This document shows positions 8,449 through 36,827 of a DNA stretch of 37,831 bases, piece after piece (position 1 is the first letter of the stretch; each line of letters opens with the position of its first letter). Source of the stretch: Kiloniellaceae bacterium (GTDB lineage: Bacteria > Pseudomonadota > Alphaproteobacteria > Kiloniellales > J153); contig JAJFGL010000026.1 in NCBI GenBank assembly GCA_021776135.1, positions 1 through 37,831 on the forward strand, read 5' to 3'. The notes under the pieces were generated by a model, which ran no database searches, was not told the origin of the DNA, and saw only the letters and a program-made list of their open reading frames with translations. A program made the position numbers and the translations under genes.

Positions 8449-8464
8449 GAGACTCACTTTGTGG

Positions 8465-19609: not shown

Positions 19610-21127
19610 TTACATGGTTTTCCAGTCTTCCGCTTGCTCAAAGGCATAGGCGGCCCGGTAGATCGTGGTCTCGTCGTAGTGCCGGCCGACGAGATGGAGG
19701 CCGATGGGCAGGCCGTCGCCTAGGCCGCAGGGGACGGTCAGAGCCGGATGACCCGTGGCATCGAAGGCCGCGGTGTTTGGGAACATCTCGTGCGCGCGTT
19801 GAATCTTAAGCGAACGCGGCGCGTCAGGCGGTGGTATGGGCGTCGCCTTGAGCGGCAGGGTCGGCATGAGCAGTAGGTCGACCTTGGACAAGGCTTGGTC
19901 GTAGGCCGCCCGCAGGCGCCGCGAAAGGTTCTGCGCCTTGGCGTAGTGATGCCCGCCGTACTGATTCAGCATGTATTGTCCCAGGAGAATCACGTAGGTC
20001 AGCGAATCGGATAGTTCGTCGGCCCGGTGCCGCCAGGATGAATAGCTATCGAGGAGGCTCGTAACATAGAGGCCACGCCAATTGGTGCCGAAGCCGTTAC
20101 CCAGCATCATGCAGTCGACGGTACCCTCGACCCCGATCGGAGTCCAGATGGCGAGGCTCTGCAGATGCATGGGGATGGATATCGTCTCGACTTGGGCACC
20201 GAGCTTCGCGAACCGCTGTGCCGCCGCACGAACTTTTTCGTCCACGTCAGCTTCCGAATTGGCGTGACCAAAGCCTTCCTCCAGCACGCCGATACGAAGG
20301 TCGGAAATATTACCATCCAGGCGCGCAGTATACTCGTCGGCGTGGGCGCCATATTGCCGCGGATCCAGGCCGTCTTCGCCGGCGATGACTTCTAGCAGAA
20401 GTGCATTATTATAAACAGTATCGGTCATGGGTCCGCAGTGATCGATAGTCATCTCGATCGGCATGACTCCGGTATAGGGCACCAAACCATGGGTAGCTTT
20501 CATGCCGCAAATACCGCTATAGGATGCCGGAATGCGGATCGAGCCGGCCTGATCGCATCCGAGCGCCATGGGCACCTCCCCAGCCGCCACGAGCGCCGCG
20601 CTGCCCGACGAAGATCCTCCGGTCGTATAGCCCGCTTTCCACGGGTTCTGAACCGGCCGTCCGGTGGCGTTGGTGTGACTGCCGCCGGAGAAGCACAGAT
20701 ACTCGCAATGCGCTTTGCCCGCGATCTCGCCGCCGGCATCGAGAATTCGGGTGACCACGGTGGCGTCGATGTCGGGGGTATATCCCTCCAGTACCGAAGC
20801 GCCATTCATCATGGGCACGCCGGCGACGCAGATATTATCTTTTATGGCGACCCGCTTGCCAGTGAGCTTGCCTTGCGGCGCCCCCTTAATCTCGGTTTTC
20901 ACATACCAGGCATTGTATTTGTTCTCCTCATCGTCCGGACGATAACCCGGCGTACGTGGATATTTCACGACCGGAAGATTATCCGGCATCGCATCGACGA
21001 CATTGTAGCCGGCGATCAGAGGGGCCATGCACTCAAGGTACTCAGCTGCGTCTTGGTCCGAAAGCGTGATGCCGAGTTGCCGCCCCACCTCAATGAGTTG
21101 CGCGGTGGATGGAGTATTGATGGTCAT
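19610..21127 (-). CDS. Amidase, AmdA-like (nitrile-pathway amidase type)
   Basis: Amidase-signature enzyme of 505 residues. It resembles the Rhodococcus-type enantioselective amidases usually encoded beside nitrile hydratase: GVPMMNGASVLEGYTPD (103-119), LVPYTGVMPIEMTIDHCGPM and the ending region FPNTAAFDATGHPALTVP are shared with that group. The triad is Lys96 (VAIKDN), Ser172 (GGSSSGS) and Ser196 (DQAGSIRIP). An N-terminal helical extension of about 70 residues is also typical. No nitrile hydratase genes occur in the window. ATG 21127 has GGGAG 8 bases upstream. It is divergent from the GatC-like/amidase pair to its right and lies just inside the IS6 end. Confidence 0.93.
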   Translation of the reverse strand: MTINTPSTAQLIEVGRQLGITLSDQDAAEYLECMAPLIAGYNVVDAMPDNLPVVKYPRTPGYRPDDEENKYNAWYVKTEIKGAPQGKLTGKRVAIKDNICVAGVPMMNGASVLEGYTPDIDATVVTRILDAGGEIAGKAHCEYLCFSGGSHTNATGRPVQNPWKAGYTTGGSSSGSAALVAAGEVPMALGCDQAGSIRIPASYSGICGMKATHGLVPYTGVMPIEMTIDHCGPMTDTVYNNALLLEVIAGEDGLDPRQYGAHADEYTARLDGNISDLRIGVLEEGFGHANSEADVDEKVRAAAQRFAKLGAQVETISIPMHLQSLAIWTPIGVEGTVDCMMLGNGFGTNWRGLYVTSLLDSYSSWRHRADELSDSLTYVILLGQYMLNQYGGHHYAKAQNLSRRLRAAYDQALSKVDLLLMPTLPLKATPIPPPDAPRSLKIQRAHEMFPNTAAFDATGHPALTVPCGLGDGLPIGLHLVGRHYDETTIYRAAYAFEQAEDWKTM

Positions 21128-21351: not shown

Positions 21352-21558
21352 ATGGGTCAAATATCGCCGGAAAATCTTGAGAATCTCTGTGTGGAGCTGT
21401 TTGGCGTGGATCTGGAGCGCGACAGGCTGGAGATCCTGGTCGTTGAATTGCAGGGCATATTACTCGAAATCAAAAAGCTTCGTGAGCTCGACTTAACCGA
21501 CGAGCATCCGGTGGTCATATTCGATCCCGAGACAGTATATAGGAATTCTGACTCATGA
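21352..21558 (+). CDS. GatC-like small protein, partner of the next amidase (copy A)
   Basis: 68-residue protein resembling the GatC/AtzG type of small subunits that clamp around an amidase-signature enzyme. It aligns without gaps over its whole length with the 68-residue protein at 26648-26854 (29 identical positions), most strongly at 40-59, IKKLRELDLTDEHPVVIFDP. I chose ATG 21352: GGGGAG precedes it by 7 bases and the length then equals that of copy B. Two earlier starts are possible. Its stop overlaps the amidase start (ATGA), implying coupled synthesis in equal amounts. The family name is inference; the pairing is directly visible. Confidence 0.82.
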   Translation: MGQISPENLENLCVELFGVDLERDRLEILVVELQGILLEIKKLRELDLTDEHPVVIFDPETVYRNSDS

Positions 21559-22952
21559 GCGACTGCGACGTCGAGCTTCTGCCGATCGAAATCCTTGCCT
21601 CTAAGATTGAAAAGCAAGAGATAACGGCGTCTGAACTTGTCGAACGAATGCTCGGTCGCATCGGCAACCACGATTCGAAGATCGAAGCCTTTGTGCGAGT
21701 TTCCGACACCGCTAAAGCCGCCGCACACCAAGCAGACGAGGATATCCGAAATGGGCTTTACCGCGGATCTCTCCATGGCATTCCGATCGGGATCAAGGAC
21801 AACTACCTGACCGAGGACATGTCGACAACCGCCGGCACCAAGGTGCCGGACATCTCCTTTCCCAATACGGACGCAACCGCCGTCCACTTGCTGCGGGAAG
21901 CCGGTGCCATTCTCATCGGCAAGACCAACATGCATGAGTTTGCTTGGGGTAACGTGACGCCGCCCACAAAAAACCCCTGGGACCGCAACCGAGTGCCCGG
22001 TGGCTCGAGCGGTGGATCGGGCGCCGCTGTGGCTGCGTCGTTCTGCTCGGCAGCTCTGGGATCAGATACCGGCGGTTCGGTTCGGATCCCGGCGAGCTTG
22101 TGTGGTACCGTGGGCCTGAAGCCGACCTATGGCCTGGTCAGCAAGAGCGGCATTATAACGCATAGTTGGTCCTTGGATCATCCCGGACCACTGACGAAGA
22201 CCGTGACCGATGCGGCGCTAATTCTGAACGTCTTGGCAGCATTCGACTCGGAGGATCCGAGCAGCCGCAAGATTGCGGTCCCCGATTATCGGCGGTCGCT
22301 TGGGCAATCGATCAAGGATCTTCGAATTGGTGTCTGCCGGAACCACTTCTTTGGGCAGAACGATTCGGAAGTCGAGGCCGCGGTTGAAAGCGCGATCGAA
22401 GAACTCACGGAACTCTCGGCTGGGCTGGTCGAATTTGAGCTGCCGAACCTGCAGTACGGTCTCGGCGCTATCTTCACGATCGAATTGGCATCCTCGTCCT
22501 GTTATCACGATCGGTCCCTTAAGGCCGGCTTGCAGAAAGGCTTTCAGCCTGACGTTCGAACCTTGGTCGAGGCCGGAAAATTCATCACGGCCACGGACTA
22601 TTTGAAGGCTGAGCAGTTCCGTCGCGTCCTGATGCGCGACCTGGCCAAGGTTTTCGAATCGGTCGATGTCATTGTAGTGCCAACCACCCCGATCACGGCC
22701 TGGGAACTGGACCAAACGACCGTGCGGATCGGCGATGCAGACGAAAGCGTCCTGGCGGTGTCGTGGCGGCTCACCTATCCCTTCAACCTGGCTGGATTGC
22801 CCGCGATCTCGCTGCCTTGCGGTTTTGATTCCCGTAATCTACCCATAGGCATGCAAATCGCAGGGAAGCCCTTTGCCGAAGACGTTATTCTTCGCGTAGC
22901 ACACGCATACGAATCGCGTCACGATTGGCACCACCGCACGCCCAATCTCTGA
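21555..22952 (+). CDS. Amidase signature family hydrolase, copy A (GatA-like)
   Basis: Amidase of 465 residues with Lys81 (GIPIGIKDNY), Ser151 (PGGSSGGSGAAV) and Ser175 (GSDTGGSVRIPA). It is a clear paralog of the amidase at 25257-26651: GVCRNHFFGxN, GLGAIFxxELASS and SWRLTYPFNLxGLPAIS recur in both. Unlike GatA it has no GatB neighbour, and it is paired only with the GatC-like small protein, so a tRNA amidotransferase role is unlikely; small-amide or carbamoyl hydrolysis as in AtzE-like enzymes is a better model. Base composition is somewhat less GC-rich than copy B, which argues against a very recent duplication. Confidence 0.92.
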   Translation: MSDCDVELLPIEILASKIEKQEITASELVERMLGRIGNHDSKIEAFVRVSDTAKAAAHQADEDIRNGLYRGSLHGIPIGIKDNYLTEDMSTTAGTKVPDISFPNTDATAVHLLREAGAILIGKTNMHEFAWGNVTPPTKNPWDRNRVPGGSSGGSGAAVAASFCSAALGSDTGGSVRIPASLCGTVGLKPTYGLVSKSGIITHSWSLDHPGPLTKTVTDAALILNVLAAFDSEDPSSRKIAVPDYRRSLGQSIKDLRIGVCRNHFFGQNDSEVEAAVESAIEELTELSAGLVEFELPNLQYGLGAIFTIELASSSCYHDRSLKAGLQKGFQPDVRTLVEAGKFITATDYLKAEQFRRVLMRDLAKVFESVDVIVVPTTPITAWELDQTTVRIGDADESVLAVSWRLTYPFNLAGLPAISLPCGFDSRNLPIGMQIAGKPFAEDVILRVAHAYESRHDWHHRTPNL

Positions 22953-22983
22953 GTAGCGGTATCAGGCACGAGAGAGTATGGGC

Positions 22984-23020
22984 TTGGTGGAACCGGAACA
23001 GAGTCACCGGCACCTTCCAA
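22984..23020. terminator. Possible bidirectional stem-loop between convergent genes
   Basis: TTGG, GG and CCGG on the left pair with CCGG, CC and CCAA on the right around a 10-base loop, with two small internal loops. It lies between the ends of the convergent amidase A and M20 hydrolase genes. There is no long T-run, so it is only a weak terminator candidate. Confidence 0.25.
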
Positions 23021-23039
23021 TTTGCGGCATCGCCTTCGC

Positions 23040-24332
23040 TCAGGCCTTTATGCCATCTACCAAACGAATCAAGGTCTGCGCGAGCACGCGGGCGCCAGCG
23101 GCTAGGTCTTCAGGACTGGCGTTCTCCGCCGGATTATGACTGATGCCTTTTTCGCAGGGAACGAAGATCATACCGCTCGGGCAAACATCGTTCAGGAACT
23201 GCGCGTCGTGGAAGGCGCCGGAGGGCATCTGGATCGCCGGAAGGGCAAGCTCCCGCGCGCTTTCCGAAATCGCGCGCTGCACATCAAGGTCGAACAGGCA
23301 AGGTTCGCGGGAAAAGGTTTTGCGCACCCGCACGTCGCAACGGCCCACCGCGGCCTCGCATGTTGGGCCTACTGCCTCGGCAAGCCGCCATAGAACCTCC
23401 GCTTCTGGATGCCGCAGATCGACGGTGAACAGAACCCGTTCGGCGACGGTGTTGGGTGAATTCGGTGTGACAACGAAGCGCCCGACGGTGAAGCGGACGA
23501 TATCGTTATCGTCGGCCATAACTTGATTGAGCGCCTGGACCGCCGCAAGTGCACCCTGGAGTGCGTCGCGGCGGGTCTTGAGCGGGGCGGCCCCCGCGTG
23601 GGCACTCTCGCCCAAGACCTCGACTTCGAACCAGCGCGAGCCCTGAATGCCGGTCACGACACCGATCGGCACGCCCTCGGCCTCGAGGCGCGGTCCCTGT
23701 TCGATGTGCGCCTCGATGTAGGCGGCGATTGGGAAGTTGAAAGCCCGGGTCTCGTCAACCGGGGTTGCCTCAAGAGTTGCGGCGAGCGCGTCCTCCAGCC
23801 GCACGCCCTCGCCATCGGTGATCGCGAGGCAATCGGTCAGGGCCCGCGATCCGGTGAACACCATGGAGCCCATGGCGCCCGGCGCAAAGCGCCCGCCCTC
23901 CTCGTTGGTCCAGGCGACGACCTCGATCGGTCGCTCGGTCACCGCGCCGGCGTCCTCGAGCGCCTCGAGGGCCTCAAGCCCAGCGAGCACCCCATAAGCG
24001 CCGTCGAAGCGGCCGCCGCTGGGTTGACTGTCCAGGTGGCTTCCGGTCACAACCGGCGCCGCTGCCGGATCCCGGCCGGGCCGGCGGATGAACAGGTTGC
24101 CGATGGCATCCTGCGCGCTCGTGAAGCCGCGCGCCCGTGCCCAGCCGATCAGCAGTTGGCGGGCGGCGATGTCTTCTTCGGTGAATGCCTGGCGGCACAC
24201 GCCATTGCCCGGAATCGCGCCGAGCGCGGCCATTTCCATATGACGGCGCCACAATCGCTCCTGACTCACCTGGTCAGCGGCGCTACCCGGCAGATGGTTG
24301 GCCCGGGCGGCTTGTCCGGCCTCGTTGATCAT
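23040..24332 (-). CDS. M20-family N-carbamoyl-amino-acid amidohydrolase / allantoate amidohydrolase type
   Basis: Dinuclear zinc amidohydrolase of 430 residues from the hydantoinase/carbamoylase (HyuC, AllC, beta-ureidopropionase) branch of M20. Metal and catalytic residues are in TGSHLDSQPSGGRFDGAYG (His99, Asp110), WTNEEGGRF (Glu144, Glu145), IEAHIEQGP (His209) and KGISHNPAEN near the C-terminus. Such enzymes cleave a carbamoyl group to ammonia, carbon dioxide and an amino acid. ATG 24332 was preferred to an overlapping TTG at 24350 because AGGGGG precedes it at 9 bases. It lies 14 bp after the nitrilase-family gene, and is the last gene of the transporter-led operon. Confidence 0.92.
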   Translation of the reverse strand: MINEAGQAARANHLPGSAADQVSQERLWRRHMEMAALGAIPGNGVCRQAFTEEDIAARQLLIGWARARGFTSAQDAIGNLFIRRPGRDPAAAPVVTGSHLDSQPSGGRFDGAYGVLAGLEALEALEDAGAVTERPIEVVAWTNEEGGRFAPGAMGSMVFTGSRALTDCLAITDGEGVRLEDALAATLEATPVDETRAFNFPIAAYIEAHIEQGPRLEAEGVPIGVVTGIQGSRWFEVEVLGESAHAGAAPLKTRRDALQGALAAVQALNQVMADDNDIVRFTVGRFVVTPNSPNTVAERVLFTVDLRHPEAEVLWRLAEAVGPTCEAAVGRCDVRVRKTFSREPCLFDLDVQRAISESARELALPAIQMPSGAFHDAQFLNDVCPSGMIFVPCEKGISHNPAENASPEDLAAGARVLAQTLIRLVDGIKA

Positions 24333-24346
24333 GCCCTCGATCCCCC

Positions 24347-25231
24347 TCAATACCAGCCGCGCTTGATGTCCGCGCCCAGGTTTTCGGCGTAGAGATCAAT
24401 GCGCCGGTCGCGCAGCACCTGGTTAAAGTCGTTCCAGTTGCGCTTGCGCCGCGCGTCCGAAAGGTTGGCGTCGGCGATCAGCATTTCTTCGCGGTCTTCG
24501 CTGGCCGGCCCGGCGAGCGGCCATCCGGTGTGGCTGAGCACCACGCTGTTGCCAATAAACGGCTGGCCGCGTTCGGTGCCGATCCGGTCGGCGGCGGCCA
24601 CGAACATGGAATTGGTATGGGCGCCGCCCATGGCCAGGATATTGGACATCTTGGGCATGCCGGCGGGTTGCTCCGGCATGGGGACCCAGTTGGTCGGCAC
24701 GCAGAGGATGTCGGCACCCTGAAGCGCGGCGAGCCGGAACACCTCCGGGAACCAGATGTCGTAACAGACCACCACCGCGATGCGGCCGATGTCGGTGTGG
24801 AACACCGGTACCCCCAGGTTGCCCGGCTCGAAAAATAGATTCTCTTCCGCCCAAAGGTGGTTCTTGCGATAGGTGCCGATCACGCCTTGGGGACCGACCA
24901 CCACGGCGGAATTGTAAAGGGTGCGCCCCTCGCGCTCGGCGATCCCGGCGACAATGTGCATCTTGTGACGCGCCGCGGCATCCGCCCAGGCCTGGCAGCT
25001 CGGTCCGTCTGGAATCTCCTCGGCCAGCGCTCCCGCTTCTTCGCGGGTGTTGAAGACGTAGCCGCTGTTACACAGCTCGGGCATGACCACCAGGTTGGCG
25101 CCGGCTTCGGCGGCCCGGTCGATCATTTCCATACCATGGGCCAGGTTTCGGTCCTTCTCGCCGACATGGGGCTCCATCTGAAGGCAGGCAATCCGGACCT
25201 TGCTTTCGGGTTCGTGTTCGCTGGTCATCAT
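24347..25231 (-). CDS. Nitrilase-superfamily carbon-nitrogen hydrolase
   Basis: Thiol C-N hydrolase of 294 residues with the triad Glu52 (VVMPELCNSGY), Lys123 (GTYRKNHLW) and Cys156 (VVVCYDIWFPE). The sequence is closest in style to the aliphatic amidase-like, carbamoylase and beta-ureidopropionase branches, not true nitrilases, but I cannot assign one. The ATG pair at 25231/25228 is used, with GAGG upstream; a frame open further up overlaps amidase B and is not family-like. It follows amidase B by 25 bp and precedes the M20 enzyme, placing three unrelated C-N hydrolases in succession. Confidence 0.9.
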   Translation of the reverse strand: MMTSEHEPESKVRIACLQMEPHVGEKDRNLAHGMEMIDRAAEAGANLVVMPELCNSGYVFNTREEAGALAEEIPDGPSCQAWADAAARHKMHIVAGIAEREGRTLYNSAVVVGPQGVIGTYRKNHLWAEENLFFEPGNLGVPVFHTDIGRIAVVVCYDIWFPEVFRLAALQGADILCVPTNWVPMPEQPAGMPKMSNILAMGGAHTNSMFVAAADRIGTERGQPFIGNSVVLSHTGWPLAGPASEDREEMLIADANLSDARRKRNWNDFNQVLRDRRIDLYAENLGADIKRGWY

Positions 25232-25256
25232 GGCGCGGCCTCGGTCAGGTTTCGAG

Positions 25257-26651
25257 TCAAAGCTGTGGACGTCTTGCCGCCCAGTCATGGGTCCGCTCGT
25301 AGGCGTGGGCGACGCGCAAAACCATCGCCTCGTCGAACGGCTTGGCGGCGATTTGCAGACCGACCGGCAGGCCATCGCGATCGAAGCCACAGGGCATCGA
25401 GATCGCCGGTAAGCCGGTCAAATTGAACGGGTAAGTGAGACGCCACGAGGCCGCCAGAACGCTCTCTTGCTCGCCCGCGATCTCCAGAGTTTTCGCATCG
25501 TGTGCCCAGGCGGTCAGGGCAGTGGTCGGCGCGACGATGACGTCCACCTCTTCGAAGGCCTTGCGGAAATCCGCCATCAGCACACGGCGGAGCTGTTCAC
25601 CTTTTAGGTAATCCACGCCGGTCACGAAACGGCCGAGCTCGACCAAGCTTCTGACATCCGGCTCAAAGTGCCGCGTCTTCCCGTCACGGAGTGAAACATC
25701 GTGATAGGCGGTCGAGGACGCAAGCTCGACCGCGAAGATGGCGCCCAGGCCATATTCCAAATTCGGAATTTTGAATTCATGCACCGTCATCCCTTGGGCC
25801 GCCAAGTCGCGAATCGCCTCTTCGACGGCGTTCTCGACTTCCACTTGATTGCGGCCGAAGAAATGATTCCGGCAAACCCCAACGCGCAAGCCTTGCACCG
25901 CTTGTCCCAGTGCCTCGGTGTAATCCGGCACCGGACGATCTTGACACGATGGATCGGCAGGATCGAAGCCGGCAAGCACGTTCAGCATGAGCGCGGAATC
26001 GGCGACCGATCGGGTCAGCGGCCCGGCTACATCCAGGGACCACGTATGCGGCACGACACCCGCCCGACTTGCGCGCCCAAATGTCCCCTTCAAGCCAACA
26101 GTGCCGCAAAGACTAGCCGGTATGCGGATCGATCCCCCCGTATCGGATCCCATCCCCGCCGTGCAAAGACCGGCCATGACCGCCGCGCCTGTGCCGCCGC
26201 TGGAGCCGCCCACCACGCGTCCAACATCCCAGGGGTTGCGCGTGGGTGGCGTCACCGTGCCCCAGGCGAACTCGTGCATTCTGGTTTTGCCTGTCAGGAT
26301 CGCGCCTGCCGCGCGCAAGCGAGCGACCGCATTCGCATCCTCACGGGGGAACGAGAAGCCAGGTACTTCCGTGCCGGCCCTCGTTGGCATGTCGCCGGTC
26401 GTGTAGTTGTCCTTTATCCCCACGGGGATGCCGTGCAGGGGTCCGCGCCACCGATCATCGCGAATCTCGCGCTCGGCTTCTTGAGCGGACTTCAGCGCGT
26501 CTTCAGCTAGGTGTATGTAGCTGAGAAGGGTGCCGTCGTGCTGCTTTATTCGATCTAGGACCGATTCGGTCAAAGCAACCGGCGAGACTCGACCCGCACG
26601 TATGTCGGGTGCGAGGTCTTCTATGGTGCGGGCCCAAAGCTCGGTACTCAT
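25257..26651 (-). CDS. Amidase signature family hydrolase, copy B (GatA-like)
   Basis: Amidase of 464 residues, paralog of the gene at 21555-22952, with Lys80 (GIPVGIKDNY), Ser150 (VGGSSGGTGAAV) and Ser174 (GSDTGGSIRIPA). The start overlaps the stop of the GatC-like small protein by 4 bp (ATGA), exactly as in copy A. Shared blocks such as VCRNHFFG and SWRLTYPFNL suggest related but not necessarily identical substrates. It is inside the operon led by the Urt/Fmd-type transporter, so the imported compound or a breakdown product is its likely substrate. Confidence 0.92.
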   Translation of the reverse strand: MSTELWARTIEDLAPDIRAGRVSPVALTESVLDRIKQHDGTLLSYIHLAEDALKSAQEAEREIRDDRWRGPLHGIPVGIKDNYTTGDMPTRAGTEVPGFSFPREDANAVARLRAAGAILTGKTRMHEFAWGTVTPPTRNPWDVGRVVGGSSGGTGAAVMAGLCTAGMGSDTGGSIRIPASLCGTVGLKGTFGRASRAGVVPHTWSLDVAGPLTRSVADSALMLNVLAGFDPADPSCQDRPVPDYTEALGQAVQGLRVGVCRNHFFGRNQVEVENAVEEAIRDLAAQGMTVHEFKIPNLEYGLGAIFAVELASSTAYHDVSLRDGKTRHFEPDVRSLVELGRFVTGVDYLKGEQLRRVLMADFRKAFEEVDVIVAPTTALTAWAHDAKTLEIAGEQESVLAASWRLTYPFNLTGLPAISMPCGFDRDGLPVGLQIAAKPFDEAMVLRVAHAYERTHDWAARRPQL

Positions 26652-26854
26652 GACTTTGTCCCGTCGTAGCCATCGGTTGGATCGAATATGACCGCCGGAT
26701 GCACATCGGTCAGGTCGAGCTCCCGCAGCTTTTGAATCTCTTTGAGGATGTCCACGAAGGCGTGCAAGTTTTCATCAAGGCGTTCGGGAGTGAAGTCGAC
26801 CCCCAGGATGTCCTTGTAGGGATCCAGAGGTGGCTTCTTTGAAGAATCTGTCAT
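26648..26854 (-). CDS. GatC-like small protein, partner of the next amidase (copy B)
   Basis: 68-residue protein aligned end to end with the copy at 21352-21558. The shared core is EIQKLRELDLTDVHPAVIFD in its C-terminal half, preceded by a GVD and RL pair at 18-26. In GatC and AtzG a tail of this kind wraps over the amidase; the same may hold here. ATG 26854 has GAGG 8 bases upstream. It lies 73 bp after the DUF1028 gene, so a separate promoter for the hydrolases is possible. Confidence 0.85.
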   Translation of the reverse strand: MTDSSKKPPLDPYKDILGVDFTPERLDENLHAFVDILKEIQKLRELDLTDVHPAVIFDPTDGYDGTKS

Positions 26855-26927: not shown

Positions 26928-27671
26928 TCATGGCGCGCTGCCCCCGCCGCCGGGCCGCCGCGGTGGCGGCGCCAGCAACATTTCGCTGACCGAGTCCGGT
27001 AAGCCGCCGGCCGGCTTACCGCGTTTGGGCATGCCCTCTACAAAGGGAAGCAGTTGCAGCCGCGCGATGGTCGCGATGCGGCGTAATTCGGCAACCGGTT
27101 GCGGGTGTTCATCGACTCGAAGGTCGAGCCAGGGATAGTCTTCTGTGTGGTGAACGCACAGCGCCGCCGACTGCTTGCCGCGCTTGTCGCCGCCGGCAGC
27201 GTTACCGGCCTCGAGCGCCAGCAAAAGCCGTTCGGCCAGGTCCTCCGCAGCGCTGTCCTGAAACGCCCCGGCCATGGCGGTTAAAGTCGCTTCACCGACC
27301 AGCATGTTGCCTTGAATCGCGACATCCATCGCGGTGATATGGCCGTACCAAGAGGTGCAATCCTGGCCCGACCAGGAGGCGCTGCGGCCCATAACATCGA
27401 CCATGCCGATCTGGCGAAGCTCAGCGCCTTCGTCGCTGGCCATAACCCGGTCCAGCGCATCGGGCGCCGCAACGCCCCGCTCCATCAGCCCTAAGGCCTC
27501 AATGGCCAGATAGGGGTTGACCCAGGACTGGGTCGAAACCGCGCCAACGCCCGCCTTCACATGGGGGCAGAGCGCGCCGACCGCCGGCACCGCGGTACTG
27601 ACCGCGACCCCTAGCATCCCGCTACGTGAACAGCGGCCGACGATCGAGAAGGTGTTCAAGTGCAGAGTCAT
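26928..27671 (-). CDS. DUF1028 family protein (Ntn-hydrolase-like)
   Basis: Protein of 247 residues matching the DUF1028 family: NTFSIVGRCSRSGMLGVAVS (6-25), GVGAVSTQSWVNPYL, ELRQIGMVDVMGR, IQGNMLVG and the LDLRVDEHPQPVAELRRI segment. The family has an Ntn-hydrolase-like fold and no established general activity, though it is often found near peptide or amide hydrolases. No signal peptide is visible. The C-terminus ends in a proline/glycine-rich tail (APPPRRPGGGGSAP). It lies 17 bp after the transporter ATPase gene and before the amidase module, so a hydrolytic or accessory role in the amide pathway is reasonable inference. Confidence 0.88.
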   Translation of the reverse strand: MTLHLNTFSIVGRCSRSGMLGVAVSTAVPAVGALCPHVKAGVGAVSTQSWVNPYLAIEALGLMERGVAAPDALDRVMASDEGAELRQIGMVDVMGRSASWSGQDCTSWYGHITAMDVAIQGNMLVGEATLTAMAGAFQDSAAEDLAERLLLALEAGNAAGGDKRGKQSAALCVHHTEDYPWLDLRVDEHPQPVAELRRIATIARLQLLPFVEGMPKRGKPAGGLPDSVSEMLLAPPPRRPGGGGSAP

Positions 27672-27688: not shown

Positions 27689-28402
27689 TCAGACCGATAA
27701 GTGATTAGCAATACGTTCAGCGGCATTCTTCGTGTCGCTACTGCCTTCGTCGTCGATCTCACCCAGTTTCACGACCGCCCAGCGGTCAGCGACCTCTAAC
27801 GCGAAGCGGACGTTCTGCTCGACCAGAAGCATGGCCACGCCGGTCCGCCCGCGCTCCGCCAACAGCGCTTTGGCGAGCCGTTCGATGATCGAGGGCTGCA
27901 GGCCTTCGGTGATCTCGTCGACCAACATGAGCTTGGGACGGGCCATCAGGGCGCGCGCGATCAGCAACATCTTCTGCTCGCCGCCCGAGAGTGTCCCGGC
28001 GCGCTGGCTAAGCCTTTCCTTGAGGAAAGGAAACACCTCGCCCACCCGTTCCAGTTCCTCATCGAACCACTTCGCTTCGGGCTGGCCGATGCTCAGGTTG
28101 TCGCCCACACTCAGGTCCTGAAAGATGGCCTGCTCCTGCGGTGTGTAGGCAATAGCCTGGCGCGCGATGCGGTGCGGCGGGAATTTGGTGACGTCGCCCC
28201 CGTGCAACAGAACCTTCCCCTCACGCGCGGGCAGAAAGCCCATCACGGTCTTAAGCAGCGTGCTCTTACCCATACCGTTCTTGCCAAGCAGCGCGACGAT
28301 CTCGCCCGGCGCCACGGTGACGTTGATGCCGCGCACCACGATCGCCTCGCCATAGCCGCTAGTTAGCCCGCTGATCGCCAGGGCGGCCGCTTCGCCGCTC
28401 AT
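27689..28402 (-). CDS. livF: ABC transporter ATPase, LivF/UrtE type
   Basis: ATPase of 237 residues with Walker A GKNGMGKST, signature LSGGEQKMLLIARAL and Walker B LMLVDEITEGLQPSII. The EGLQPSII continuation is typical of UrtE/LivF of the hydrophobic amino acid/amide uptake family. The usual DEPTEG is DEITEG here, which leaves the catalytic Glu intact. The start overlaps the stop of the permease-ATPase fusion (ATGA). Confidence 0.93.
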   Translation of the reverse strand: MSGEAAALAISGLTSGYGEAIVVRGINVTVAPGEIVALLGKNGMGKSTLLKTVMGFLPAREGKVLLHGGDVTKFPPHRIARQAIAYTPQEQAIFQDLSVGDNLSIGQPEAKWFDEELERVGEVFPFLKERLSQRAGTLSGGEQKMLLIARALMARPKLMLVDEITEGLQPSIIERLAKALLAERGRTGVAMLLVEQNVRFALEVADRWAVVKLGEIDDEGSSDTKNAAERIANHLSV

Positions 28403-30225
28403 GGTCCATCGCCTTTGAGGTTCAGCGCCGTGCCGGCATAGATCTCGCGAACCAGTTCGGAATCGACGACCTCTTCCACGGAGCCGTCCAGCAGGATTTT
28501 TCCTTGATGCAATACGATCACCCGCGAGCTGATTTCGCGGACGAAGTCAAGGTCGTGCTCGACCAGCAGAATGCTCAGACGCTCACGCTCGGTCAGGGAG
28601 GTCAGGATCGCGCCGATCCGCTCGCGTTCGACTCGGGTCAGGCCCGCGGTCGGCTCGTCGAGAAGTACGATACGCGGCTCCAAGGCCAGCACCATGGCGA
28701 GCTCAAGGGCCTGTTTCTGGCCATGCGCCAAATGGCGGGCCTCGGTGTCGAGGCTCTGCGCGAGGCCGGTTTCCTCAACGATGCGCAACGCCGCTTCGGG
28801 CAAGCCGAGTGTGGTGTCGCTGGTCCAGATCGACGGCGGTGCCATGCGGTAACGAGCGACGCGCAAACACTCCCCAACCGTCAGTGTGGCAAAAACGTTG
28901 GCGGTCTGGAACTTGCGCCCGATGCCGAGCGCGACGCAGCGTTCCGGCGGCCAGCGGCCCAGGTCCTTACCGAAGATCGTGATGTCACCACCGGAGCGTT
29001 CATAACCATCGGCCAGACAACGGATCAAGGTCGTCTTGCCGGCGCCGTTAGGACCAACCAGGCTAAGGAGTTCACCTTCCTTCGCTTCGAAATCGATACC
29101 CTGGAGGACCTGTAAGCTGCCGAAATGCCGGTGCACCCCGCGAACCGTGAGCGGCTGCTCCTTACCGTGCACGACCCCGCGGGCGGGGGCAGGTTCGAGC
29201 TTCGGCGCCTCGGCCTTGCGGCGCGCGCCCGGAACGAAGCGCCGCCAAATCTTGGTCACCTCTGGCATCAAACCCTGTGGCAATGCCACGATGACCACAA
29301 CGAAGAGAATGCCGACCAAAAGTTTCCAATAGAACGGTAGGCTGCCGGAGAGGTAGGAGCTGGTTACATCGATGAGAATCGCGCCGATCACAGGACCGAT
29401 CAAGGTACCGCGACCGCCAAGCGCAACCCAAATCAATAATTCGGTGCCGAGCAGGAAGCCGGCCAACTCCGGCGCGACGACGTTGGTGAAGGCGGCGTAA
29501 CCGAAGCCTGCGATCGCGCCGATTGCGCCGGAGGCGACCAAAAGCAGAATCTTGATCCGCGATACCGGGATGCCGAGGTAAGCACAGCGGTTCTCGTTCT
29601 CCCGGATCGCGACCAGAACCCGGCCCATATCGCTGTGCACGAACAGCCAAGCCAAAGCCGTGACCACAACCAGAAAGGCGCCGGCGATCCAGAACCAGGT
29701 CTCTAGCGGCCAGTAGTAGGTGGGAAACCCGGAAAGCCCGCTGCTGGAACCAGTCGTGCGGCCGCCGGCGTAGATGATCTGTGTCACGACGATGGTTAGT
29801 GCCAGCGTGACGATGGAACCGTAGAGCGGCGAGGCGCCGTGATAAAACGCGAGCCAGCCGACCAGCGCGGCCACCGCCATTGCGGTCAGAATCCCGAGCG
29901 CCAGCGCGAGTATAGCCCAGCCGGCACCAAATCCCCAATGGGTGAACACCAAAGCGCAGGCATAGGCTCCGATTCCGAAGAAGGCGGATTGCCCAAAGGT
30001 GAGGATGCCGGTGTAGCCCCACAGCAGATCGACGGTCAAAGCAAGAGCCGCCAGCAGCAGCGCGCGGATCAGAATGTTGATCGTGTAGATGTCCAGGAAG
30101 AACGGCGCCACGCCAAGAACCACAAGCGCGGCTACGCTGACTTTGAGCACGTTTGCCAGATCGGAGCGCCGGCGCGCCGCGGTGCGCCGCCCCTTGGCTG
30201 GGCCGTTCTGCACCTGCTCAACCAC
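28399..30225 (-). CDS. Fused ABC permease-ATPase (LivM-LivG / UrtC-UrtD type)
   Basis: A single 608-residue chain. Residues 1-330 form a LivM-type permease with about ten helices (LLWGYTGILTFGQSAFFGIG at 68-87; REN at 208-210). After a linker rich in Arg, Ala and Pro (331-355) comes a LivG/UrtD-type ATPase with Walker A GPNGAGKTT at 391-399 and Walker B IVLLDEPTAGL. The signature is LAHGQKQALELAM, close to the LSHGQKQ form of urea-transporter UrtD and unlike LSGGQ. The frame is open throughout, so this is a true fusion. The start is GTG at 30225, overlapping livH by 8 bp. Confidence 0.93.
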   Translation of the reverse strand: MVEQVQNGPAKGRRTAARRRSDLANVLKVSVAALVVLGVAPFFLDIYTINILIRALLLAALALTVDLLWGYTGILTFGQSAFFGIGAYACALVFTHWGFGAGWAILALALGILTAMAVAALVGWLAFYHGASPLYGSIVTLALTIVVTQIIYAGGRTTGSSSGLSGFPTYYWPLETWFWIAGAFLVVVTALAWLFVHSDMGRVLVAIRENENRCAYLGIPVSRIKILLLVASGAIGAIAGFGYAAFTNVVAPELAGFLLGTELLIWVALGGRGTLIGPVIGAILIDVTSSYLSGSLPFYWKLLVGILFVVVIVALPQGLMPEVTKIWRRFVPGARRKAEAPKLEPAPARGVVHGKEQPLTVRGVHRHFGSLQVLQGIDFEAKEGELLSLVGPNGAGKTTLIRCLADGYERSGGDITIFGKDLGRWPPERCVALGIGRKFQTANVFATLTVGECLRVARYRMAPPSIWTSDTTLGLPEAALRIVEETGLAQSLDTEARHLAHGQKQALELAMVLALEPRIVLLDEPTAGLTRVERERIGAILTSLTERERLSILLVEHDLDFVREISSRVIVLHQGKILLDGSVEEVVDSELVREIYAGTALNLKGDGP

Positions 30226-31054
30226 TGAATAGCCCCTGCGGACGGATGCGAAGGATCACCGCGGCCAGCACCACGATGGTCAGGCCGCCGAGGATCGCGC
30301 TGACATAGGTGCTGACCACGACCTGGGCGCCGCCGAGAATCAACGAGGCCACAATCAGGCTAGGTATGGAGATACCCGAGACCAGAACCAGCATGAAGGA
30401 GTTGATCAGCCAAGGCAGGCCGAGGTTCGGGTCAACTGAGATGAGCGGCGTGATCAAGGCGCCCGCCATGCTGGCGAGCGCCGCGCCGAGACCGAACGTA
30501 ATCAGGCGGACCCGGGTACTATCGATGCCTAGGCCGCGCGCCAGATCCTCGTTCATGATTACCGCGCGCGCGTTCAGCCCGAATCGCGTGAAGTAGAACA
30601 GCGCCGTGAGCGCCACCGCCAAAAGCGCGGCCAGGGCGACCAAGATAAGCCGGTAGGTCGAGTAGGAATAGCCGAGAAACTCGATCGCGCCCGAGATCGG
30701 GCTTTGCACGAACTGAACCTGGCGCCCGAAGACGATGGTGATGACCTGGCCGATGATAATACCCAGGCCCCAGGTCGCCAGGATGGCATCCAAGGGTCGG
30801 GCATAAAGTGGCCGGACGATCACGCGCTCGACGATTAGCCCAAGTATGAACCCGACCAAGGCGGCGAAAGGAATCGCCAACCAGGGATTCCAGCCCAGCT
30901 GCGTGGTGGCGAAGGCGGCGTAGCCGCCGATGGTTAGAAAGGCGCCATGGGCGAAGTTGATCAACTTCATGACGCCCAGGATGATCATCAGGCCGCTCGC
31001 GACCGCGAAGAGAATCGCCGCCGTGGTTACGATATCGAGGAGCAGAACGCCCAA
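30218..31054 (-). CDS. livH: ABC transporter permease, LivH/UrtB type
   Basis: Inner-membrane permease of 278 residues with about eight helices and the family segments MKLINFAHGAFLTIGGYAAF (28-47) and an Arg-rich REVIVRPLYARPLD-like loop (here ERVIVRPLYARPLDAI). The start is TTG at 31054, with GGGGGA about 9 bases upstream; an in-frame TAA just before rules out a longer start. Pairs with the permease half of the downstream fusion. Confidence 0.92.
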   Translation of the reverse strand: MGVLLLDIVTTAAILFAVASGLMIILGVMKLINFAHGAFLTIGGYAAFATTQLGWNPWLAIPFAALVGFILGLIVERVIVRPLYARPLDAILATWGLGIIIGQVITIVFGRQVQFVQSPISGAIEFLGYSYSTYRLILVALAALLAVALTALFYFTRFGLNARAVIMNEDLARGLGIDSTRVRLITFGLGAALASMAGALITPLISVDPNLGLPWLINSFMLVLVSGISIPSLIVASLILGGAQVVVSTYVSAILGGLTIVVLAAVILRIRPQGLFSG

Positions 31055-31145: not shown

Positions 31146-32312
31146 TTACAAATTAGGACATTGCTCGCCCGGATCGACGTCTTTGAAGGTGCTTATCAAC
31201 TTGATGCCCCCGTCGGCCTGGACTTGCGCCAGATACATGGTCAGCGGTGCATGGCGCTGCTTGTTCATCTGGATCCTGCCGCGCGGCCCCTGGAAGGAGA
31301 CATCATCGAGCGCGTCTATGACTGCTTGAGGATCGGTCGTGCCGGCCTTCTCAACTGCCAGCTTGTACAGATAGACACCCTCGTATTGCGGCACTGAAAG
31401 GTCGTTCGGCGTCTTCAGCTTGTCGCCGAAGTGGGCCTTCATATTTTTCAGGTACGCCTGATTCTCCGCACTTGGGATATCGGTGATGTACGATGCCGAA
31501 ATGTAGATGCCCGCAGCATCGGCACCCATATTCCGGGCCGTGCCTTCGTCGACCGCGAGGTTGCCGTAGGGAATATCGATGCCCGCCGCGCGCAGCTGCT
31601 TGGTAAGCGTCACGTTCGGCGCGCCACCGGCGGTCGAGGTGATCAGGGCATCGGCACCGGAGGACTTCAACTTGCTGATGATCGGCGTCCAGTCGGTGCC
31701 ATCCATGGGCAGGTATTCGTCGCCCAGAACCTTGCCGCCCTTTTCGGCGATGTAATCGGCAGTAAACTCGAGCATGCCGCGGCCGAAGGCGTAGTCGCTG
31801 CCGATCAAGAAGAAGGTCTTGGCGTCCTTGGTGGTCATGAAATGATCGACGATTGGCGCGACTTGCTGGTCCGGCACCCATGCGTTGACATAAAGCCATG
31901 GGCTGCAAGACCGGCCCTCATAGAACGAGGTGTAGATGAAGGGCACGCGACCGCGATTGACGATCGGCAGGCCGGCGTTGCGCGCCGCGCTCGTCTCCAT
32001 GGAGATGAGCACATCCACCTTCTTTTGGAAAACCAACGAATCGAAAGCTTTCTGCGCGCCCTGCGCACCGCTGCCGTCGTCCGCGACAATATACTCGAGC
32101 TGGCGGCCTAAAATCCCGCCGGCGGCATTGATTTCTGCGACCGCCAGTTCACCGGATTGGACCACAGAGGGCGCAACGACGCTGTTAGCGCCGCTTAACC
32201 CGACCGGGACACCGATCTTGATAGTCTCGGCGGCAGAAGCGCCACCGCCTAGGCCGAGAACTGCCGCGACCGCAAGCGAGCCCGCCCAGCTACCTAACAG
32301 TTTTTTCGCCAT
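31146..32312 (-). CDS. ABC transporter substrate-binding protein, amide/urea (AmiC/UrtA/FmdD) type
   Basis: Periplasmic type I binding protein of 388 residues with a signal peptide of about 28 residues ending SAAE. The mature protein starts IKIGVPVGLSGANSVVAPS and has YTSFYEGRSCSPWLY (around 127-141) and IGSDYAFGRGM, features of the Peripla_BP_5/6 group that binds short amides, urea or branched amino acids. Operon order (binding protein, LivH, fused LivM-LivG, LivF) matches urt and fmd clusters. ATG 32312 follows AGGAGAGGA at 7 bases. A 91-bp gap to livH has no clear terminator. Confidence 0.9.
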   Translation of the reverse strand: MAKKLLGSWAGSLAVAAVLGLGGGASAAETIKIGVPVGLSGANSVVAPSVVQSGELAVAEINAAGGILGRQLEYIVADDGSGAQGAQKAFDSLVFQKKVDVLISMETSAARNAGLPIVNRGRVPFIYTSFYEGRSCSPWLYVNAWVPDQQVAPIVDHFMTTKDAKTFFLIGSDYAFGRGMLEFTADYIAEKGGKVLGDEYLPMDGTDWTPIISKLKSSGADALITSTAGGAPNVTLTKQLRAAGIDIPYGNLAVDEGTARNMGADAAGIYISASYITDIPSAENQAYLKNMKAHFGDKLKTPNDLSVPQYEGVYLYKLAVEKAGTTDPQAVIDALDDVSFQGPRGRIQMNKQRHAPLTMYLAQVQADGGIKLISTFKDVDPGEQCPNL

Positions 32313-32561: not shown

Positions 32562-32706
32562 TTTGAGTAAGATCACTCGAATGACAGGCATGTGATGTAA
32601 ACTGACTCCTACCCGCTATTGGCCATTTTAGTTGTGATGGATGGGGAATTGGCCGATTGAAGGGCTGGCTGGGACCGCAGATGAGCCTGGGAGAACTTGG
32701 AGTGAC

Positions 32707-33279
32707 ATGACGGGATTGGAAGTCCACGAGCTGGGCGTGAAGTTGCGACACGCCAGGAAACTCAAGCGAATGCGACTGAAAGACGTCGCCTCCAAGGTCG
32801 GCTGCTCGGAAAGCCTGTTATCGAAAATCGAATGCGATAAGGCGATGCCCTCGCTGCGTACCCTGCATCGCATCGTTAGCGTTCTTGACACCTCGGTCGC
32901 CTCCCTATTCGGCGATCCCGCGGCTGAGAACGTTACGCTGTACCGGAGCGGCGAACGGCCGGTGATCGTCATCGATGCACCGGATAGTCCGGACCCCATT
33001 GGTCTTGAGCGCATGACCCCCTACGTCGAGGGGCAGTCCCTGGAAGGCAATGTCCATGTGGTCGGTCCCGGGGCGAGCAGCGGCGGTGAGATCAGTCATA
33101 TCGGTGAGGAAGTCGGCTATGTTCTTGAGGGCGAATTTGAACTGACCGTCGGCGGAAGGACCCACCACCTCAAGGCTGGAGATTCGTTCTTCTTCCGTTC
33201 GGAGTTGCCGCACAGCTACTGCAATCCCGGTGAGGTCTCGGCGCGCGTTATCTGGGTAAATACCCCGCCGACCTTCTAG
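32707..33279 (+). CDS. XRE-family regulator with C-terminal cupin domain
   Basis: Regulator of 190 residues: an HTH_XRE domain at about 10-65 (LRHARKLKRMRLKDVASKVG, SESLLSKIE) and a cupin_2 barrel at about 110-185 (GEEVGYVLEGEFELTVGG, GDSFFFRSELPHSY). This PuuR-like architecture senses small metabolites such as amines and amino acids through the cupin. ATG 32707 was chosen since GGAG stands 6 bases upstream and the preceding frame residues are not family-like. It is divergent from the transporter operon and upstream of the oxygenase genes, so it may control both. Confidence 0.92.
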   Translation: MTGLEVHELGVKLRHARKLKRMRLKDVASKVGCSESLLSKIECDKAMPSLRTLHRIVSVLDTSVASLFGDPAAENVTLYRSGERPVIVIDAPDSPDPIGLERMTPYVEGQSLEGNVHVVGPGASSGGEISHIGEEVGYVLEGEFELTVGGRTHHLKAGDSFFFRSELPHSYCNPGEVSARVIWVNTPPTF

Positions 33280-33345: not shown

Positions 33346-34371
33346 ATGTTTAACGACAAAGCGTATCCCATGGTAGCGCATGACGAAGCGCCCCTGAACC
33401 CGCAACTTAGCACTGGACGTGCCTTGCTGAGCGTTCGAGTCAAGGCGATACGCCGCGAAGCTGACAATATTCTGACTTACGAACTCGTCCATCCGAATGC
33501 CGGCGTGCTGCCATCCTTCACCGCCGGCGCGCATATCGATGTTCGCATCCGTGATGACCTGAAGCGCCAGTTTTCTCTGTGCAACGCACCCGGTGAGCGT
33601 AACCGCTACGTGATTGCCGTGCTCAGGGAAAAGGCCGGCCGCGGCGGCTCCATGGCGATGCACAACGACGTACGAGAGGGGAACCTCCTGAGCATCTCCG
33701 AGCCGCGCAACCAGTTTCCGCTGGCCGGCCAGGAGGCGGAATTTCATCTTCTGCTCGCTGGTGGTATTGGTGTCACGCCCATGATGGCCATGGCCGAGGC
33801 GCTTGAGGCGCGGCGTGCCCGCTGGCATATGCACTATTGCACGCGCAACCCGGAAGCGACGGCATTCCGCGCCCGGATCGAACCTTTGATCGCAGCGGGC
33901 AAAGTCACACTGCATCATGACGGTGGCGACCCAAGCCAAGGACTCGATATCAAAGCGCTGCTTACCTGCTATGAGGCCGGGTCGCATGTTTATTTTTGCG
34001 GCCCGCCCGGTTTTATGAGCGCGATCAAGACATCGGTTAATGCCTGGCCGGCGCACAGCATCCACTGTGAATATTTCACGTCATCGGAAGAAAACGCGGA
34101 ACTTGACAACGCGCCGTTTCAGATCAGGGTTAAACATACGGGTGATGTGCTCAATGTTCCGGCCGACGGCACCATTGTCGGTGTACTGCGCGAAAACGGT
34201 TTCGCCATCGATACCGATTGCGAAGATGGCTACTGCGGAACCTGCATAACTCGCTATCTGGAGGGTGACCCGGAGCACCGGGATTCCGTCCTGAGCGAAA
34301 AAGAGCGTAAGAGCTATGTCATGGTTTGCTGCGCGCGTGCGAAGGGCGCGCCCCTGGTACTCGATATTTAG
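33346..34371 (+). CDS. Rieske oxygenase reductase (FMN and [2Fe-2S], VanB/phthalate dioxygenase reductase type)
   Basis: Electron-transfer partner of 341 residues passing electrons from NAD(P)H to a Rieske oxygenase. Domain order is that of class IA reductases: flavin domain (Arg74 in KRQFSLC), nucleotide domain (LLAGGIGVTPMMAMAEAL, 136-153) and a C-terminal plant-type ferredoxin with Cys292, Cys297, Cys300 and Cys328. An N-terminal extension of about 25 residues precedes the usual start, so initiation at a later codon is possible; the upstream ribosome site is weak. It lies 57 bp before the oxygenase. Confidence 0.92.
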   Translation: MFNDKAYPMVAHDEAPLNPQLSTGRALLSVRVKAIRREADNILTYELVHPNAGVLPSFTAGAHIDVRIRDDLKRQFSLCNAPGERNRYVIAVLREKAGRGGSMAMHNDVREGNLLSISEPRNQFPLAGQEAEFHLLLAGGIGVTPMMAMAEALEARRARWHMHYCTRNPEATAFRARIEPLIAAGKVTLHHDGGDPSQGLDIKALLTCYEAGSHVYFCGPPGFMSAIKTSVNAWPAHSIHCEYFTSSEENAELDNAPFQIRVKHTGDVLNVPADGTIVGVLRENGFAIDTDCEDGYCGTCITRYLEGDPEHRDSVLSEKERKSYVMVCCARAKGAPLVLDI

Positions 34372-34428
34372 CGGCCTGGACATGGCCGCGTGGCCCTTGA
34401 GTATGAATATGCTTTGGAGAAGAACGTC

Positions 34429-35553: not shown

Positions 35554-35564
35554 CCGGCAGCGCG

Positions 35565-36791: not shown

Positions 36792-36827
36792 CGATCGTAA
36801 AATCTTCGAAGAAAGGACGACCGAAGC

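What the first reader, a model, noticed from the sequence alone, without database searches (positions are those of the whole stretch)
21352..26854. Two mirrored GatC-like/amidase modules with matching 68-residue partners
Each amidase (21555-22952 and 25257-26651) is preceded by a 68-residue protein whose stop overlaps the amidase start by ATGA. The two small proteins align without gaps, with 29 of 68 positions identical and 17 of 20 identical at residues 40-59. Small GatC-like subunits are known for GatCAB and for the AtzE-AtzG complex, but this tail (LRELDLTD.HP.VIFDP) and its pairing with stand-alone amidases looks like a distinct family of two-subunit amidases. Two diverged copies within 6 kb suggest consecutive steps or two substrates.
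Basis: partly seen in the sequence, partly recalled or inferred. Interest (0 to 1): 0.78.

Follow-up and report, generated by a model that had tools for sequence, protein, structure and literature searches.

The report
GatC-like partners of stand-alone amidases
Two amide-cutting enzymes in this bacterium each come with their own tiny partner protein; the partner is a distant relative of a subunit of an enzyme used in protein synthesis, and it may be one branch of a wider, mostly unlabelled class of two-part enzymes.

Summary
Two 68-residue proteins (21352-21558 +, 26648-26854 -) each overlap by ATGA the start of a 464-465 aa amidase; they share 29/68 residues, 17/20 at residues 40-59. They belong to a family: in 26 of 26 pairs found through the small protein an amidase of the same type follows directly. 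Profiles link the family to GatC (probability 96) and to AtzG (93), while GatC and AtzG barely match each other (9), so it bridges the two. Amidase trees keep it apart from GatA and AtzE. The tail is not unique: AtzG-like proteins and partners of other amidases, including nitrile-hydratase-linked Rhodococcus ones, carry similar P-A-x-x-F tails. Pair B belongs to a conserved operon with a urea/amide-type ABC transporter, DUF1028 and a nitrilase. The pairs are old paralogues in different subclades, not a recent duplication. Best reading: non-catalytic GatC-related subunits that assemble or stabilise amidases acting on imported amides. The physical complex and the substrate are inferred, not shown. 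New variant of a known kind (AtzEG-like).

The parts
21352..21558 (+). small1, GatC/AtzG-like partner, 68 aa
   Evidence: ORF and overlap; no Pfam family over cut-off; GatC profile built here E 4.6e-6 among a handful of local ORFs
21555..22952 (+). amidase A, 465 aa, Lys81-Ser151-Ser175
   Evidence: PF01425 398.8 bits, cut-off 27; catalytic columns; subclade with L013/L014
26648..26854 (-). small2, GatC/AtzG-like partner, 68 aa
   Evidence: ORF; PF02686 GatC 15.9 bits, below cut-off 23
25257..26651 (-). amidase B, 464 aa, Lys80-Ser150-Ser174
   Evidence: PF01425 386.8 bits; groups with L019, L020 and 7 loci of family f161, support 80
24347..25231 (-). nitrilase-family carbon-nitrogen hydrolase (start inferred)
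   Evidence: PF00795 186.7 bits; present in 9 of 9 operon relatives examined
23040..24350 (-). M20 hydantoinase/carbamoylase-family amidase
   Evidence: TIGR01879 397.6 bits, cut-off 204; found beside the pair in 1 of 20 context loci, L104
26928..27671 (-). DUF1028 protein
   Evidence: PF06267 249.4 bits; directly before the small gene in 9 of 9 operon relatives
27689..28402 (-). ABC transporter ATPase, LivF-like
   Evidence: conserved in the operon; name recalled from sequence features, no family scan of its own
28399..30225 (-). fused permease-ATPase, LivM-LivG-like; best NCBIfam models UrtD and UrtC, below cut-off
30218..31054 (-). ABC permease, LivH-like
   Evidence: conserved in the operon; name recalled, no family scan of its own
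31146..32312 (-). substrate-binding protein; best NCBIfam model UrtA 225.6 bits, cut-off 492.75
32641..33279 (+). XRE-cupin regulator, divergent from the operon
   Evidence: HTH and cupin Pfam hits; present in 7 of 7 f161 loci

Best explanation
Each pair is a two-subunit amidase. The large protein is an amidase-signature enzyme with an intact Lys-Ser-Ser site. The small protein is a non-catalytic subunit that shares ancestry with GatC, the small subunit of the tRNA amidotransferase: a central helix followed by a conserved tail. Shown here: strict gene pairing with overlapping or closely spaced genes, profile-level homology to GatC and AtzG, purifying selection in relatives, parallel divergence of the two subunits, intact catalytic residues, replacement of two GatA residues recalled to bind glutamine, and a conserved operon around pair B. 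Inferred: the small protein lies on the amidase with helix and tail and is needed for solubility or assembly, as AtzG is for AtzE; the enzyme hydrolyses a small amide or ureido compound brought in by the neighbouring ABC transporter, releasing ammonia, with the nitrilase and (in the window) the M20 amidase acting on the same or related compounds. Pair A and pair B are ancient paralogues, so different substrates are likelier than redundancy.
For: Pairing 26 of 26. A profile of 10 small proteins has GatC as its two best PDB hits (3h0l_C E 2.6e-5, 2df4_C E 0.019) and finds the genome's own GatC (E 4.2e-4). Profile-profile: family to GatC 96.4 (score 50.0), to AtzG 93.0 (37.4); 25 shuffled-column controls each scored at most 16.4 and 11.3. 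Mirror-tree r 0.87 (13 pairs) and 0.92 (12 pairs), 0 of 2000 permutations as high. AtzG precedent: AtzE is not soluble without AtzG (PMC6219798, passages read). Transporter, DUF1028, nitrilase, small gene and amidase together in 9 of 9 relatives of pair B examined. GatA columns D425 and R358 hold Trp403 and Leu336 in amidase B (alignments; their role is recalled).
Against: No complex was predicted or observed. The monomer model of small2 is weak (pLDDT 69, pTM 0.36) and has no fold match. Plain BLAST with AtzG finds none of the family's small genes. The 24 GatC rows used had been picked by the family's own profile, which favours the GatC match; the PDB hits are free of that. Mirror-tree correlation also follows from shared descent. 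7 of 30 related amidases have no recognisable partner, so the fold does not always need one. In family f161 the small protein lacks the N-terminal part. Clades I and II did not join in the amidase tree.
Confidence: 0.78

Rival explanations
1. The pairs are extra copies of GatCA that serve tRNA-dependent amidation with a shared GatB.
For: GatC is the closest profile and the GatA model scores highest for amidase A (370 bits).
Against: The genome has a separate gatC-gatA-gatB set on contig C6; GatA scores lie below the curated cut-off 481; the small proteins lack the C-terminal third of GatC; two residues recalled to bind glutamine are replaced and a GatA insertion of about 20 residues is absent; the neighbourhood is catabolic.
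Confidence: 0.04
2. These are plain AtzE-AtzG (1-carboxybiuret or oxalurate/oxamate type) enzymes.
For: Same layout, same length as AtzG, matching tail position, profile match 93.
Against: AtzE is a separate clade with support 100; AtzE models give 338 and 314 bits against cut-off 425.75; no PF13318 match over cut-off anywhere in the genome; tblastn with AtzD and AtzH of pADP-1 finds nothing in the window or 20 related loci, while both find their own record.
Confidence: 0.07
3. The small ORF is only a leader that couples translation, or a loosely acting chaperone, not a stable subunit.
For: ATGA overlap; short length; strong divergence between groups; partnerless relatives exist.
Against: Conserved protein motif and profile homology to two known subunits; purifying selection in 30 of 30 comparisons; parallel divergence.
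Confidence: 0.11

Closest known systems
AtzE-AtzG (1-carboxybiuret hydrolase, Pseudomonas sp. ADP)
   Same: 68-aa protein encoded directly before an amidase-signature enzyme; profile match 93; same tail position
   Different: Separate amidase clade; 29-36% identity to AtzE for the window amidases and other clade I members; AtzG-like cut-off not met; no AtzD or AtzH found nearby; different operon
GatC-GatA of GatCAB
   Same: Related small and catalytic subunits; core helix aligns
   Different: C-terminal third of GatC missing, glutamine-pocket residues (recalled) replaced; the genome keeps its own gatCAB on C6
HpxX-HpxY of oxalurate catabolism (NCBIfam HpxX seen; pathway recalled)
   Same: Small protein next to an AtzE-like amidase
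   Different: HpxX model matched one plasmid relative only, weakly (13.1 bits, cut-off 70), and neither window protein

Membership tests
Amidase signature family (PF01425) | Profile over curated cut-off | tested here: met
   398.8 and 386.8 bits, cut-off 27
Amidase signature family (PF01425) | Lys-Ser-Ser catalytic residues | tested here: met
   K80, S150, S174 in amidase B, same columns in amidase A and in all 28 rows printed
GatC (PF02686) | Profile over curated cut-off 23 | tested here: not met
   small2 15.9 bits, small1 no match; 3 of 10 family members match at E <= 1, best 1e-4
GatC (PF02686) | Homology at profile level | tested here: met
   GatC chains are the two best PDB hits; profile-profile 96.4 (GatC rows picked by the family's own profile)
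AtzG-like (PF13318) | Profile over curated cut-off 24 | tested here: not met
   no match for either protein; best in the whole genome 15 bits elsewhere; 1 of 10 family members, E 5e-4
AtzE (TIGR02715) | Profile over cut-off 425.75 | tested here: not met
   338.1 and 314.4 bits
GatA (TIGR00132) | Profile over cut-off 481.1 | tested here: not met
   370.0 and 317.3 bits
AtzE-AtzG-AtzH cluster | AtzH gene nearby | tested here: not met
   tblastn with AtzH of pADP-1: 0 of 21 (window and 20 related loci), positive in its own record
AtzG/AtzE-type two-subunit amidase (as a way of working) | Small gene directly before the amidase gene | tested here: met
   26 of 26 pairs
AtzG/AtzE-type two-subunit amidase (as a way of working) | Stable complex; amidase insoluble without partner | not testable with these tools
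   needs expression; AtzEG precedent in PMC6219798 (passages)

The most novel reading that the evidence does not exclude
Two-subunit organisation is a widespread property of GatA-related amidases. A superfamily of roughly 55-100 residue GatC-related subunits, most of them unrecognised by Pfam and annotated as hypothetical or not at all, partners catabolic amidases in Proteobacteria and Actinobacteria, including amidases of nitrile-hydratase operons. The GatCA core was reused many times as a catabolic enzyme, and the window family is the sequence link that ties GatC, AtzG and these other partners together.
Probability: 0.55. Interest if true: 0.7.

Novelty: new variant of a known kind. Interest (0 to 1): 0.57.

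Why it matters
Amidases of this kind are used in biocatalysis and pollutant breakdown and, as far as I recall, are usually cloned as single genes. If many need a tiny, unannotated partner, insoluble or failed expression has a simple explanation and a simple test. The family also supplies a sequence bridge between GatC and AtzG, in line with the proposal that the core of a translation enzyme was reused for catabolism, and it gives DUF1028, for which the held library has no paper, a precise operon context.

Tried and rejected
Fold route: AlphaFold2 of small2 with four rows gave pLDDT 69, and Foldseek against the PDB returned nothing, so no structural claim rests on it. A search of 349 genomes of the family of G303 (guessed to be near L019/L020) found no match at E <= 1e-5. 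The plasmid collection gave nothing for small2; the amidase B query found nine records, all nine with a short ORF ending -6 to +14 bases from the amidase start. Of these nine tails, six fit the pattern, L143 is a near miss, and L141 and L146 do not fit. A DNA-level plasmid search with pair B gave 14 records, 0 covering 80% of it. Of the 30 amidase relatives with loci, 7 lack a recognisable partner, and 4 of the 10 divergent partners match only at E 0.014-0.083 among a handful of ORFs. The divergent partners match AtzG (86) and the family (88) but not GatC (2.2), and clade III to the divergent group is only 60. The GatC rows had been picked by the family's profile. The tail pattern was written after seeing the sequences; 24 of 39 amidases against 3 of 229 control ORFs is descriptive. 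The union of clades I, II and III is open: together with L149 it is one branch at 96, it is not one branch, where holding it together costs 7.5 log units and is not rejected (p-AU 0.232); a test of I+II alone did not finish. In one search clades I and II did not join. All trees are 'quick' ones with SH-aLRT support only. Of 75 places found, 44 had no locus and were not examined. Recent local duplication of the two pairs was rejected by the tree. Literature, all 10 searches: (20 of 255 listed; 7; 0; 20 of 40 listed, nothing relevant; AtzG, 10 papers: PMC6219798 and PMC11945447 plainly relevant, PMC12677791 possibly, not opened; 10 of 14 listed; 1; 0; 0), 89 (15 of 53 listed, nothing on this). 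The 2018 JBC paper on AtzEG is not held and is known here only through PMC6219798, PMC12283126 and PMC12625717 (passages read). PMC10608976 (passages) reports a protein called GatC raised together with an amidase in an iprodione-degrading Achromobacter; whether it is such a partner could not be checked.
Full report
OBSERVATION. Both small proteins have 68 residues and both overlap the amidase start by ATGA. They share 29 of 68 residues without gaps and 17 of 20 at residues 40-59; 10,000 shuffles of one sequence reached at most 14 identities. The amidases are 60% identical over 455 residues. No Pfam family reaches its cut-off for either small protein; small2 gives GatC at 15.9 bits, cut-off 23. 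Both amidases are clear PF01425 members but fall below the cut-offs of the GatA and AtzE models.

A FAMILY BESIDE AMIDASES. A profile of the two proteins found six more genomes among 289 of the class, own genome aside, and two named records. Widening the search brought one, nine and six further members. Counting the window's two, that is 26 pairs. In 26 of 26 an amidase follows directly, and it resembles the window amidases more than GatA or AtzE (L079 is cut by its contig end). Three more pairs of the same kind turned up later through the amidase (L116, L119; plasmid locus L142). The other 28 loci that were examined lie beside a GatA-type amidase (28 of 28), that is, they are GatC hits; 44 weaker places were not examined. 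As a yardstick, 20 of 20 AtzG-like loci from 249 genomes lie beside an AtzE-type amidase.

CODING AND PARALLEL DIVERGENCE. In 30 of 30 comparisons among 18 members, synonymous differences exceed non-synonymous ones. Distances of small proteins and amidases correlate: r 0.87 in clade I (13 pairs), 0.92 in clade II (12 pairs, L079 left out), 0 of 2000 permutations as high. Shared descent alone can give such a correlation, so it supports pairing without proving contact.

GATC AND ATZG ARE BOTH RELATIVES. A profile of ten family members has GatC as its two best PDB hits (3h0l_C, E 2.6e-5; 2df4_C, E 0.019) and finds the genome's own GatC (E 4.2e-4). In profile-profile comparison the 26-member family matches GatC with probability 96.4 (score 50.0) and AtzG with 93.0 (37.4); GatC against AtzG gives 9.1 (20.0); shuffled columns gave at most 16.4 over all comparisons (first run). 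Two cautions: the 24 GatC rows had been picked by the family's own profile, and plain BLAST with AtzG finds no family member. The family thus has a GatC-like helix and an AtzG-like tail and links the two. The tail LRELDLTD.HP.VIFDP corresponds to the AtzG-like tail of type DEAEPAPVF and to the region of GatC around VEPM.

AMIDASE TREES. Window amidases fall in a clade of 13 with support 100 (clade I); a second set of 13 forms clade II (99); GatA and AtzE are separate clades; clades I and II did not join in this tree. Amidase A groups with L013 and L014 (97), amidase B with L019, L020 and seven loci of family f161 (80). Small1 scores best against L013, and small2 against L019 and L020, in step with the amidases. 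The pairs are therefore old paralogues. A wider tree adds clade III (100), which holds amidases from Rhodococcus and Streptomyces plasmids and two loci of the window's class. Clades I, II, III and L149 form one branch at 96; the union of I, II and III is neither found nor rejected (p-AU 0.232).

HOW FAR THE THEME REACHES. Of 32 amidase places found in 385 genomes of the class, 30 had loci. Of these 30, 11 are clade I-II pairs including the window's two, 2 are clade III pairs, 10 have a more divergent small ORF in the same position (4 of them matching only at E 0.014-0.083), and 7 have none. Nine of nine plasmid relatives have a short ORF, about 60-116 residues from the first possible start, ending -6 to +14 bases from the amidase start; six are annotated as hypothetical proteins and three are absent from PLSDB's incomplete table. 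In two Rhodococcus pyridinivorans plasmids the amidase lies beside nitrile hydratase genes. A tail pattern P-[ASTPLV]-x-[VILATSFG]-[FY] near the end of the upstream ORF occurs for 24 of 39 amidases against 3 of 229 non-amidase ORFs; the pattern was written after seeing the data. Profile-profile probabilities are: clade III partners to the family 96.0, to GatC 95.0, to AtzG 90.9; divergent partners to the family 88.3, to AtzG 86.3, to GatC 2.2. Of 16 such partners scanned with Pfam none reaches a cut-off (9, 7). The window's genome holds a third candidate pair on contig C34, with a 74-residue partner. Partnerless amidases are clustered in the trees, three and two changes being enough.

ACTIVE SITE AND SUBSTRATE. 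Lys80, Ser150 and Ser174 of amidase B match the GatA triad and are kept in the 28 rows printed. In the alignment to the GatA chain 2df4_A (Staphylococcus aureus, recalled), Asp425 and Arg358 fall on Trp403 and Leu336 (counted by hand); that these two bind glutamine is recalled. A stretch of about 20 residues of GatA is absent. An arginine beside that Asp column (SWRLTYP, LRNTEP, VRLSCP) is kept in the 13 rows of clades I, II and III printed, not in L149, and may face the substrate (inference). A glutaminase role is therefore unlikely.

NEIGHBOURHOOD. Pair B lies in a gene run read on the minus strand: binding protein, permease, fused permease-ATPase, ATPase, DUF1028, small2, amidase B, nitrilase, M20 amidase, with an XRE-cupin regulator divergent. 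The transporter genes, DUF1028, small gene, amidase and nitrilase recur in 9 of 9 relatives of pair B examined (L019, L020 and seven f161 loci), in L020 split into two divergent units; the regulator is in all seven f161 loci. In the flanks beyond the amidase examined in these nine loci, no ORF of 120 residues or more is shared at E 1e-20. The binding protein is nearest to UrtA models, below cut-off. Relatives of pair A (L013, L014) also lie near DUF1028 genes but without the transporter in the stretch held. In nine clade II loci neither DUF1028 nor the nitrilase was found at E 1e-5. AtzD and AtzH are absent from the window and 20 related loci.

MECHANISM. Shown: gene pairing, homology, selection in relatives, intact catalytic residues, conserved operon. 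Inferred: the small subunit binds the amidase with helix and tail, as AtzG does with AtzE, which is not soluble without it (PMC6219798, passages read); the enzyme cleaves an imported amide or ureido compound. Housekeeping tRNA amidation is provided by gatC-gatA-gatB on contig C6.

NOVELTY. The kind is known from AtzEG, proposed to derive from GatCA (PMC6219798, PMC12283126, PMC12625717; passages), and atzG-atzE-atzH clusters were noted there as common in Proteobacteria. New here are a separate family outside the Pfam and NCBIfam cut-offs, its place as sequence bridge, its conserved operon, and signs that such partners are common and unlabelled. No paper on this was seen in the listings of the ten library searches, several of which listed only part of their hits; subscription journals are mostly not held.

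Noticed in passing
window 26928-27671; L093 7427-9680: DUF1028 sits directly before the small gene in pair B relatives and occurs as three tandem copies before a pair in L093; no paper holding the term DUF1028 was found in the library.
   Followed up: partly
L004 1190-1423 (own genome, contig C34): Third amidase of this genome with a small upstream ORF ending in an EPSGF tail, unrecognised by Pfam.
   Followed up: partly
L143 3687-3980 and L144 1631-1981: Short ORFs before nitrile-hydratase-linked amidases on Rhodococcus pyridinivorans plasmids, one annotated hypothetical, one not listed.
   Followed up: partly
window 28399-30225: Permease and ATPase of a Liv/Urt-type transporter fused in one protein, matched along its length in operon relatives.
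   Followed up: no
window 19610-21127 and 6997-8523: Two further amidases; the first is a PRK07235-type amidase (778.8 bits, cut-off 545) whose amidase domain begins at residue 75.
   Followed up: no
window 33346-37565: Reductase-like, Rieske oxygenase-like, CoA-transferase-like and enoyl-CoA hydratase-like genes follow the regulator on the plus strand (the last name is recalled).
   Followed up: no
L026, L087-L092: In family f161 the small protein matches the family profile only from about residue 21 on, keeping the main helix and tail, which suggests that these are the working parts.
   Followed up: no
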